Below, piece after piece: positions 45,299 to 46,401 of a DNA stretch of 64,000 bases. The DNA comes from Salipiger abyssi (GTDB taxonomy: Bacteria > Pseudomonadota > Alphaproteobacteria > Rhodobacterales > Rhodobacteraceae). Position numbers and translations under genes: made by a program. The DNA is taken from the NCBI RefSeq assembly GCF_001975705.1, contig NZ_CP015093.1, forward strand, positions 310,001-374,000, given 5' to 3'. The stretch's first letter is position 1, and each line of letters begins with the position of its first letter. The notes beneath the pieces are model-generated. The model had not been told where the DNA came from. It made no database searches and saw only the letters and a program-made list of their open reading frames with translations.

Positions 45299-45534
45299 GT
45301 CTCGTCCTTTCCCTATACGCAAACCGACGTAAGGTCACATTGCGGTGGATGCAATCCTCGCCCAGATTGCGCCTAATTATTACGCTTAACGCCTTGCTTT
45401 CGCTCAGCTCCCCGCCAAAAACCCTATGCGTTTTCCGCATAGCGGCATTGTGGCTTAGCGGGATTGTGCACTTGCAGCATTTGCCCCAGATTGATCCCAA
45501 CAACGCAATAGACCGACGCAGGCAAGTTAAGCAA

Positions 45535-45753
45535 ATGGCATACGCAACCGAACAGACCTCCCGCAGCCAAAGCGCTGTGACCGGACGCTTCGCCAATCTC
45601 GCCGCAGGTCTTCGCGAACATCTGGCACGGCGCCGTCTCTACAAGGAGACGTTCCGCGAACTCGCGGCGCTGAGCAACCGGGAACTTGGCGATCTGGGGC
45701 TGAACCGCTCGATGATCCGCCGGATCTCCTGGCAGGCCGCCTACGGGGCCTGA
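45535..45753 (+). CDS. ccaF1: CcaF1-like DUF1127 small RNA-binding protein
   Basis: 72 residues, highly basic C-terminal half. It carries the DUF1127 pattern YKETFRELAALSNRELGDLG and LNRSMIRRISWQAAYG. In Rhodobacter sphaeroides the homologue CcaF1 (RSP_6037) is encoded just before four CcsR small RNAs, is induced by stress sigma factors RpoHI/RpoHII, binds RNA and affects maturation of those RNAs. Here the same order is present, with five RNA units starting 17 bases after the stop, so cotranscription is likely. No clear ribosome site is visible (AGTTAAGCAA before ATG). Confidence 0.88.
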   Translation: MAYATEQTSRSQSAVTGRFANLAAGLREHLARRRLYKETFRELAALSNRELGDLGLNRSMIRRISWQAAYGA

Positions 45754-45770
45754 GACATAGGAATTGGTTT

Positions 45771-45847
45771 CGAAGGGCTCTCTCCTCCTCCCTGAGCCCT
45801 TCGGATATCGGCGGCGGCCTCACTCCTCCTCCCGAGGCCGCCGCCGC
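45771..45847 (+). ncRNA. CcsR-like small RNA, unit 1
   Basis: Two adjacent hairpins. First: stem CGAAGGGCTC / GAGCCCTTCG (45771-45803) with loop TCTCCTCCTCCCT. Second: perfect 12-pair stem GGCGGCGGCCTC / GAGGCCGCCGCC (45810-45845) with loop ACTCCTCCTCCC. The loop contains CCTCCTCCC, the named motif of CcsR RNAs. Ends inferred from structure. Confidence 0.85.
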
Positions 45848-45881
45848 AAAGATCAAGGGGCAGAAATGCCCTAGACGACAT

Positions 45882-45953
45882 CGAAGGCCCTCTCCTCCTC
45901 CCTGGGTCTTTCGTGTCAGCGACGGTGCCTCTCCTCCTCCCTGGCATCGTCGC
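45882..45953 (+). ncRNA. CcsR-like small RNA, unit 2
   Basis: First hairpin 45882-45913 (CGAAGGCCC / GGGTCTTTCG), second 45919-45953 (GCGACGGTGCC / GGCATCGTCGC, ten pairs and one G-U); both loops TCTCCTCCTCCCT. Preceded by a mini-hairpin GGGCA-GAAA-TGCCC (45858-45871). Confidence 0.88.
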
Positions 45954-45985
45954 ACCCTACATCCGGGCTGAACGCCCGACAGTTT

Positions 45986-46057
45986 CGGAGCCCCCTCTCC
46001 TCCTCCCTGGGGCCTTCGATACGCGGCGGGGTCTCTCCTCCTCCCTGACCCCGCCGC
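45986..46057 (+). ncRNA. CcsR-like small RNA, unit 3
   Basis: First hairpin 45986-46018 (GGAGCCCC / GGGGCCTTC), second perfect 11-pair stem GCGGCGGGGTC / GACCCCGCCGC (46023-46057); both loops TCTCCTCCTCCCT. Preceded by CGGGC-TGAAC-GCCCG (45964-45978). Confidence 0.9.
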
Positions 46058-46089
46058 ACCGAACATAGGGGCCCGATGCCCCACCGGAA

Positions 46090-46161
46090 CGAAGACCCTC
46101 TCCTCCTCCCTGGGTCTTTCGTGACCGCGACGGGGCCTCTCCTCCTCCCTGGCCCCGTCGC
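46090..46161 (+). ncRNA. CcsR-like small RNA, unit 4
   Basis: First hairpin 46090-46121 (CGAAGACCC / GGGTCTTTCG), second perfect 11-pair stem GCGACGGGGCC / GGCCCCGTCGC (46127-46161); loops TCTCCTCCTCCCT. Preceded by GGGGC-CCGAT-GCCCC (46068-46082). Confidence 0.9.
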
Positions 46162-46194
46162 ACACCACAACAAGAGCCGCGAGGCTCACCAGTT

Positions 46195-46276
46195 TCTGGA
46201 CCCCCTCTCCTCCTCCCTGGGGTGTCCGGAAAATCGACGGCGGTGCCCTCTCCTCCTCCCTGGGCACCGCCGTTTC
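46195..46276 (+). ncRNA. CcsR-like small RNA, unit 5
   Basis: First hairpin 46195-46230 (TCTGGACCCCC / GGGGTGTCCGGA), second 46237-46273 (ACGGCGGTGCCC / GGGCACCGCCGT); loops TCTCCTCCTCCCT. Preceded by mini-hairpin GAGCC-GCGA-GGCTC (46174-46187). It is the last unit and runs into the array terminator. Confidence 0.88.
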
Positions 46277-46284
46277 CTTTTCTC
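46237..46284 (+). terminator. Intrinsic terminator of the ccaF1-ccsR array
   Basis: The perfect 12-pair stem of the last hairpin is followed directly by TTTCCTTTTCTCC. No T tract follows the earlier hairpins, so this is the single end of the array transcript. The 117 bases beyond it, to valS, hold no other gene. Confidence 0.8.
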
Positions 46285-46401
46285 CCCCCCTGCTCATGAC
46301 CGCTCATCCGCCGGAGGACGGCCCGGATTCGCGGCCTTCCCCTTCCCCACGGCTTTCGATAGACGAGACGGGACGACAGATGCAGGCACGGGAAGACACC
46401 C

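What the first reader, a model, noticed from the sequence alone, without database searches (positions are those of the whole stretch)
45535..46284. ccaF1 followed by five tandem two-hairpin CcsR-type RNAs with anti-Shine-Dalgarno loops
Seen directly: ten hairpins, all with loop TCTCCTCCTCCCT or a near form, arranged as five pairs at 104-111-base steps, with stems that change by compensating substitution (for example GGGGTC/GACCCC, GGGGCC/GGCCCC, GTGCC/GGCAT). Each pair is set off by a small unrelated hairpin. A DUF1127 gene (ccaF1 homologue) precedes it and one terminator ends it. Known: in Rhodobacter sphaeroides four CcsR RNAs follow CcaF1 and act under stress. Here there are five units, and the loops are complementary to ribosome-binding sequences, so they may act as translational sponges. 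Copy number and covarying spacer hairpins look under-described.
Basis: partly seen in the sequence, partly recalled or inferred. Interest (0 to 1): 0.85.

Follow-up and report, generated by a model that had tools for sequence, protein, structure and literature searches.

The report
Five-unit CcsR stress RNA array
A bacterium whose closest named relatives are Salipiger carries a known kind of stress-RNA gene cluster, a small protein gene followed by five tandem regulatory RNAs whose loops match ribosome-binding sites, and its likely targets include formaldehyde-detoxification genes of the kind that the related cluster controls in Rhodobacter.

Summary
Ten hairpins with loop TCCTCCTCCC form five pairs at 45769-46274 behind a DUF1127 gene; the motif is expected 0.2 times in the window and occurs ten times, all here. 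It is a CcsR/'cuckoo' (CIN1) locus, a system already described in Rhodobacter sphaeroides.

Five units is ordinary: among 80 ccaF1-like loci ten hairpins is the commonest count (15 of 80; range 0-17), and three genomes labelled S. bermudensis have 4, 5 and 7 units. Stems covary. The last hairpin probably doubles as terminator. Spacer hairpins are real as a class: 146 of 170 unique spacers hold a stem of 5 bp or more, against 51 on average in shuffles.

New support for function: a start-site match of 7 nt or more to the loop (mostly GGGAGGA) is kept in 10 of 12 FlhR-like regulator orthologues, against 1 of 18 paralogues and 0 of 28 parsed fghA genes. FlhR mRNA is the published R. sphaeroides target (PMC8307010). 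Anti-Shine-Dalgarno control of formaldehyde/C1 genes is therefore the likeliest role; nothing was shown experimentally.

Verdict: new member of a known kind, with two under-explored features (spacer hairpins, expandable middle units).

The parts
45464..45492 (+). Conserved promoter element TTGTGCAnnTGCAGCATTT followed by CCCCAGATT, read as an RpoH-type promoter (TTG at -35; CCCCATnTT-like -10 in many relatives)
   Evidence: Exact core TTGTGCAnnnGCAGCA within 300 nt upstream of ccaF1 in 73 of 81 loci (window included); 2 of 1069 control windows; sequences
45535..45753 (+). ccaF1-like gene, 72-aa DUF1127 protein
   Evidence: Pfam PF06568 E 5.9e-13; 94% identical protein in Salipiger abyssi
45769..45846 (+). 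CcsR-type unit 1: anti-SD hairpins 45769-45805 and 45809-45846
45857..45872 (+). Spacer hairpin 1
45877..45953 (+). CcsR-type unit 2: anti-SD hairpins 45877-45917 and 45919-45953
45964..45978 (+). Spacer hairpin 2
45982..46057 (+). CcsR-type unit 3: anti-SD hairpins 45982-46022 and 46023-46057
46068..46082 (+). Spacer hairpin 3
46086..46161 (+). CcsR-type unit 4: anti-SD hairpins 46086-46126 and 46127-46161
46174..46187 (+). Spacer hairpin 4
46198..46274 (+). CcsR-type unit 5: anti-SD hairpins 46198-46227 and 46236-46274
46236..46285 (+). Tenth hairpin plus T-rich tail, acting as intrinsic terminator (inferred)
   Evidence: Last hairpin followed by at least 5 T in 8 in 62 of 78 arrays, other hairpins 27 of 614

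Best explanation
This is a CIN1/CcsR locus. One stress-type (RpoH-like) promoter makes a ccaF1-CcsR1-5 precursor that ends at the tenth hairpin. RNase E, with the DUF1127 protein helping or tuning it, cuts in the unpaired stretches around the spacer hairpins and releases five RNAs of about 80 nt. Each shows two CUCCUCCUCCC loops that pair with purine-rich GGGAGGA Shine-Dalgarno sites and lower translation or stability of a set of mRNAs, foremost an FlhR-like regulator, gfa and a cytochrome c gene of the methanol/formaldehyde (C1) cluster on contig 2. Shown here: anatomy, conservation of the arrangement, stem covariation, target-site conservation. Carried over from R. sphaeroides literature: stress induction, RNase E and CcaF1 dependence, flhR as target. 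Inferred: all of these in this organism, and the role of the spacer hairpins as processing marks.
For: Rfam CcsR1 hits on all five units; DUF1127 gene. Of 80 ccaF1-like loci, found by the protein alone, 77 have anti-SD hairpin chains by my rule (loops within 2 mismatches), one more (L064) has the motif further downstream and the other two contigs end within 230 nt of the gene. 11 of 14 consensus pairs show two-sided changes that keep the pair in 58 units. Promoter core in 73 of 81 loci. GGGAGGAG-N3..11-ATG: 74 matches in the genome against 7 for the reversed control; of 30 fetched, 24 open a frame of at least 60 aa. Four of the 74 lie in a 28-kb C1 cluster with an xoxF-type dehydrogenase, gfa and fghA. 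A loop match of 7 nt or more at a start codon: FlhR-like orthologues 10 of 12, gfa 5 of 9 parsed, RR paralogues 1 of 18, fghA 0 of 28 parsed. Loop:leader duplex -23.5 kcal/mol for cyt c, stronger than the first percentile (-20.8) of 114 leaders.
Against: No expression data. All units score below Rfam's gathering cut-off. Loop conservation among the aligned units is partly by construction, since the units were found by that motif; only the 77 of 80 is independent. The FlhR-like and gfa duplexes (-17.5) are stronger than the mean of 114 leaders (-10.5) but weaker than their fifth percentile (-19.0), and 9 of those 114 leaders hold GGGAGGA; other leaders of the cluster (kinase -19.8, 165263 -19.4, xoxF -16.8) pair about as well. 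A long SD is also simply a strong ribosome site. Two of 12 FlhR-like orthologues lack the match; one of them (G111) has an Rfam-grade four-unit array. The -10 in the window (CCCCAGATT) departs from the CCCCATnTT of many relatives, and a sigma-70 scan found nothing. 'FlhR-like' rests on neighbours; no curated model reaches its cut-off. Agrobacterium DUF1127 proteins act through protein contacts, Salmonella YjiS shows no RNA binding, and R. sphaeroides CcaF1 complements the Agrobacterium mutant (PMC12501420, passages).
Confidence: 0.7

Rival explanations
1. The array is mainly a protein- or RNA-titrating sponge: many identical loops soak up CcaF1, Hfq or GA-rich RNAs, and unit number sets capacity; specific mRNA targets are secondary.
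For: Two loops per unit, 2 to 17 hairpins per array where present, with an expandable middle; many leaders of the C1 cluster and elsewhere can pair; raised CcaF1 interferes with CcsR maturation and shortens CcsR1 half-life in R. sphaeroides (PMC8307010, passages).
Against: A loop match is kept at FlhR-like leaders but not at paralogues or fghA, which points to chosen mRNAs; no sponge partner is identified here.
Confidence: 0.15
2. The hairpins mainly stabilise or punctuate the ccaF1 mRNA 3' end (decay barriers, terminator), with the loops conserved for a protein such as CcaF1 that reads CUCCUCC.
For: Last hairpin has a terminator-like tail; strong stems; position directly behind ccaF1.
Against: Loop matches at leaders of a known target class; an orphan promoter-plus-unit copy lacks ccaF1; in R. 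sphaeroides the CcsR RNAs are released from the co-transcript (PMC7866481, PMC8625941, passages).
Confidence: 0.08
3. A degenerate or unexpressed tandem repeat kept by slippage alone.
For: Middle units in one S. bermudensis-labelled genome are 99-100% identical, a sign of recent duplication.
Against: Compensating stem changes, conserved promoter, terminator-like tail at the last hairpin.
Confidence: 0.02

Closest known systems
ccaF1 (RSP_6037)-CcsR1-4, Rhodobacter sphaeroides (CIN1 locus)
   Same: DUF1127 gene, tandem two-hairpin RNAs with CCUCCUCCC loops, RpoH-like promoter, terminator at the end; the published target flhR has a likely counterpart here with a GGGAGGAG leader
   Different: Five units instead of four; Rfam CcsR1 score 45-50 bits, below gathering 65.3. 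I could not compare with R. sphaeroides DNA directly
Cuckoo RNAs / SmelA075, SmelA099 of Sinorhizobium; Rfam ar14 (RF02344) and ar7 (RF02342)
   Same: Consecutive hairpins with CCUCCUCCC anti-SD loops and variable stems and number (PMC3927594, passages); ar14 matches at 42.9-53.6 bits and ar7 at 33.6, both below their gathering scores. That ar14/ar7 are the same family as the Smel RNAs is recalled
   Different: The Smel examples named there have two to four hairpins and copies on several replicons; here ten hairpins in one operon with spacer hairpins
Anti-SD regulators such as RNAIII, CyaR, AbcR1
   Same: Loops with at least partial anti-SD motifs (comparison made in PMC3927594, passages)
   Different: Single RNAs without tandem units or a DUF1127 partner gene (recalled)

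Membership tests
CIN1 / CcsR locus | DUF1127 gene directly upstream, same strand | tested here: met
   Pfam PF06568, 45535-45753; 15 nt between its stop and the first hairpin
CIN1 / CcsR locus | Tandem units of two hairpins, each loop CCUCCUCCC | tested here: met
   10 of 10 loops TCCTCCTCCC, five pairs
CIN1 / CcsR locus | RpoHI/RpoHII promoter | tested here: inconclusive
   Conserved TTGTGCAnnnGCAGCA plus CC-rich -10; sigma factor not testable
CIN1 / CcsR locus | Processing of the precursor by RNase E and CcaF1 into separate RNAs | not testable with these tools
   Needs RNA; reported for R. sphaeroides (PMC10253847, PMC7866481, passages)
CIN1 / CcsR locus | Induction by oxidative stress | not testable with these tools
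   No expression data
CIN1 / CcsR locus | Pairing with flhR mRNA | tested here: inconclusive
   8-nt loop complement at the FlhR-like SD; a match of 7 nt or more kept in 10 of 12 orthologues; duplex energy not extreme; no binding test
Rfam RF02791 (CcsR1) | Score at or above gathering 65.3 bits | tested here: not met
   44.7-49.8 bits for the five units; 17 of 394 family genomes pass (strict filters). I do not file it under RF02791
Rfam RF02344 (ar14) | Score at or above gathering 58.8 bits | tested here: not met
   42.9-53.6 bits for three matches

The most novel reading that the evidence does not exclude
CcsR arrays are an evolvable dosage device: first and last units are fixed, middle units expand and contract by unequal exchange so that the number of anti-SD loops made per transcript tunes repression of a conserved formaldehyde/C1 regulon, and a hairpin between units, conserved in shape but not in sequence, is a dedicated processing mark (perhaps the CcaF1/RNase E landing site) that keeps array output proportional to unit number.
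Probability: 0.3. Interest if true: 0.6.

Novelty: new member of a known kind. Interest (0 to 1): 0.4.

Why it matters
The papers I could see treat this operon in one model species. The comparison here makes three things directly testable: whether unit number tunes stress regulation, whether the inter-unit hairpins direct RNase E/CcaF1 processing, and whether control of formaldehyde oxidation by anti-SD loops is an old job of these RNAs in Rhodobacteraceae. It also suggests that Rfam's CcsR1 model is narrow: 17 of 394 family genomes pass its cut-off (strict filters), while 61 of 149 show a strict pair of loop motifs (pattern only; the reversed control pattern occurs in 7 of 149).

Tried and rejected
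Rejected: chance repeats; five units as a novelty in itself; a separate terminator (the tenth hairpin has the tail).

Negative or weak: RNAalifold found no consensus pair for the spacer hairpins on the sequence alignment of 64 of 86 spacers, apparently because the stems sit in different registers; I therefore tested spacers one by one against shuffles. In one search own-arm pairing is 100% by construction and arms dealt among spacers still pair 56%, so spacer covariation is suggestive, not proven. The alignment for stem covariation used 58 of the 203 units picked (270 unique, 281 in all), and units were found by their loops, so fixed loops there are partly by construction. The 74 GGGAGGAG sites include one site counted twice (two ATGs) and one antisense match inside the orphan unit itself. 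The four-hit concentration in the C1 cluster (about 0.4 expected by my arithmetic) was noticed after the fact and carries no fair p-value. The background leaders include some cluster leaders and imprecise starts. In one search, 4 of 13 gfa and 2 of 30 fghA loci were not parsed; its own count of GGGAGGA at best sites of FlhR-like genes is 8 of 12 (9 if the second start of L206 is counted), the 10 of 12 being matches of 7 nt or more. In one search, 30 of 52 promoter places became loci and 28 were checked. A promoter pattern with a fixed -10 position missed the orphan copy. In one search, 8 of 14 unrelated control genomes give a CcsR1 match at E up to 1, so the weakest own-genome matches (L007, L008 and below) are unsafe; at E 1e-13 no control matches. 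I did not run the count of structure pairs, structure prediction of CcaF1, or a phylogenetic tree. Unit counts from draft assemblies may be too low where identical units collapse.

Literature: passages only (find) in PMC10253847, PMC3927594, PMC7143759 (a reference-list entry), PMC8625941, PMC7074977, PMC7866481, PMC8307010, PMC12501420, PMC10673084, PMC12218461, PMC11354728. Searches were. Not held: Gruetzner 2021, Reinkensmeier and Giegerich 2015, Billenkamp 2015, so I cannot say that the spacer hairpins are unpublished. The names FlhS/FlhR, XoxF and pqq are partly recalled.

Full report
What is there. Between 45535 and 46285 lies a 72-aa DUF1127 gene and, 15 nt after its stop, ten hairpins whose loops all hold TCCTCCTCCC. 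The motif is found ten times in the window, all here, where 0.2 is expected. The hairpins form five pairs with steps of 103-110 and 104-111 bases, and the stretch folds far better than shuffled sequence (z -15.7). Rfam's CcsR1 model matches each pair at 44.7-49.8 bits, significant but below its gathering score of 65.3; ar14 also matches, below its own cut-off. A divergent Mrp/ApbC-type gene lies upstream and ValS downstream; within the stretches held, the same neighbours are found in 56 and 28 of 80 relatives.

Relatives. One scan of species genomes with an alignment of three ccaF1 proteins gave 80 loci, the best of 431; the nearest are Salipiger abyssi (94% protein identity) and other Salipiger. 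By a fixed rule (loops within 2 mismatches), 77 of 80 have chains of anti-SD hairpins after the gene; one further locus has the motif further downstream, and two contigs end within 230 nt. Hairpin counts run from 2 to 17 where present; ten is the commonest (15 of 80). So five units is ordinary. In three genomes labelled S. bermudensis there are 4, 5 and 7 units; first units match first units and last match last (98% and 96% between the 4- and 7-unit genomes), while three middle units of the 7-unit array are 99-100% alike. Over 16 loci of Salipiger and near kin, middle units are more alike within a locus (mean 0.881, 62 pairs) than between loci (0.834, 1204 pairs), and first units differ from other loci's middle units (0.747). 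This is the pattern of an array that grows and shrinks in the middle. Draft assemblies may hide identical units.

Structure. In 58 aligned units RNAalifold finds 14 pairs, 11 with changes on both sides that keep the pair. Loop columns are near invariant, but the units were found by their loops, so the independent evidence for loop conservation is the 77 of 80 loci found by protein alone. The last hairpin is followed by a T-rich tail in 62 of 78 arrays, the others in 27 of 614: the final anti-SD hairpin is probably also the terminator. The spacer hairpins are real as a class: 210 long spacers fold at a mean of -10.8 kcal/mol against -6.9 for shuffles, and 119 of 210 reach p 0.05 or less against 60 shuffles each; 146 of 170 unique spacers hold a stem of 5 bp or more, against a mean of 51 (largest 63) in 20 shuffle rounds. 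In ten loci that pass Rfam's CcsR1 cut-off, 26 of the 27 spacers printed fold at -6.6 or better (no shuffle control there). A sequence-based consensus fold found none, apparently because register varies. Three of the five window units begin with GTTTC, as the Rfam CcsR1 model does, which suggests that cleavage leaves the spacer hairpin out of the mature RNA; this is inference.

Promoter and an orphan copy. The core TTGTGCAnnnGCAGCA lies within 300 nt upstream of ccaF1 in 73 of 81 loci, against 2 of 1069 other 300-nt windows, often followed by a CCCCATnTT-like box. In the window's genome the fuller element TTGTGCAnnTGCAGCATTT has two exact places: this locus and a single orphan CcsR-type unit 961 kb away on the same contig, with its own T-rich end and no ccaF1; the shorter core has a third place. 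Promoter core directly followed by a CTCCTCC motif occurs in 3 of 295 family genomes; one, of another genus, shares a block around the orphan at 92% identity over 9.7 kb, so it may have moved horizontally.

Targets. Matches of the form GGGAGGAG-N3..11-ATG number 74 in the genome, 7 for the reversed control; of 30 fetched, 24 open a frame of 60 aa or more. Four lie in a 28-kb cluster on contig 2 that holds S-formylglutathione hydrolase, a cytochrome c, a PQQ-dependent methanol/ethanol-type dehydrogenase (xoxF by my reading), a hybrid histidine kinase, a FIST protein, a LuxR-type response regulator next to gfa (S-(hydroxymethyl)glutathione synthase) and, by sequence impression only, pqq genes. 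The response regulator, gfa, the cytochrome and a further gene at 168140 carry the match. I take the regulator for an FlhR counterpart from its neighbours; no curated model reaches its cut-off. [quoted passage not shown] As a test, of the 30 best regulator loci fetched, the 12 with at least 51% identity carry a loop match of 7 nt or more at a start codon in 10 cases (GGGAGGA itself in 9), the 18 below 50% in 1 case (Fisher p 2e-5); gfa 5 of 9 parsed, fghA 0 of 28 parsed. The groups were split at the identity gap before the leaders were read. The loop:leader duplex is -23.5 kcal/mol for the cytochrome and -21.7 for 168140, beyond the first percentile (-20.8) of 114 leaders; it is -17.5 for the regulator and gfa, better than the mean (-10.5) but not beyond the fifth percentile (-19.0). 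Two regulator orthologues lack the match, including G111, which has a four-unit Rfam-grade array.

Mechanism. In R. sphaeroides the operon has an RpoHI/HII promoter and the precursor is cut by RNase E, with CcaF1 involved (PMC10253847, passages; PMC8307010 says that raised CcaF1 interferes with maturation), and PNPase degrades the products (PMC7866481, passages). The anatomy here is the same, so the best account is stress-driven release of five two-loop RNAs that occupy GGGAGGA ribosome sites, notably of formaldehyde/C1 genes. None of these steps was observed in this organism. Agrobacterium DUF1127 proteins act by protein contacts and CcaF1 can replace them there (PMC12501420, passages), so the protein's part is the least certain.

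Judgement. A new member of a known kind. The spacer hairpin as a conserved third element, the expandable middle, and the conserved FlhR-like leader are the parts worth following; I cannot rule out that the unheld primary papers describe some of them.

Noticed in passing
L006 / L153 / L199 (G000:C5:1316958-1317071): Orphan two-hairpin CcsR-type unit with the same promoter core and its own T-rich end, without ccaF1; the surrounding block is 92% identical to one in a genome of another genus (G269), which has three promoter-plus-motif places.
   Followed up: partly
L007 1500-1610 (G000:C5:546288): Two CTCTCCTCCC hairpins and a terminator follow a coding region that I take, by eye, for a phasin-like protein: a possible 3'-UTR sRNA (weak ar14 and CcsR1 matches).
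   Followed up: no
L042 about 1500-1900: A second DUF1127-like gene (by eye) lies behind a two-mismatch copy of the CIN1 promoter element, suggesting a shared regulon.
   Followed up: no
window 45424-45450 and the ccaF1 loci: A second, upstream GCATAGCrGCATTG element recurs in front of the promoter in many loci (by eye); it may serve the divergent mrp gene.
   Followed up: no
L204 8712-8740 and relatives L209, L213: The SD of the FlhR-like gene lies in a short CTCCC-NNN-GGGAG hairpin in the window's genome, and something like it appears in some orthologues, so CcsR loops might compete with self-sequestration (by eye).
   Followed up: no
G000:C2 (188,936 bases): GGGAGGAG-type start sites are dense on this contig: 13 of the 74 in the 5.26-Mb genome.
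   Followed up: no
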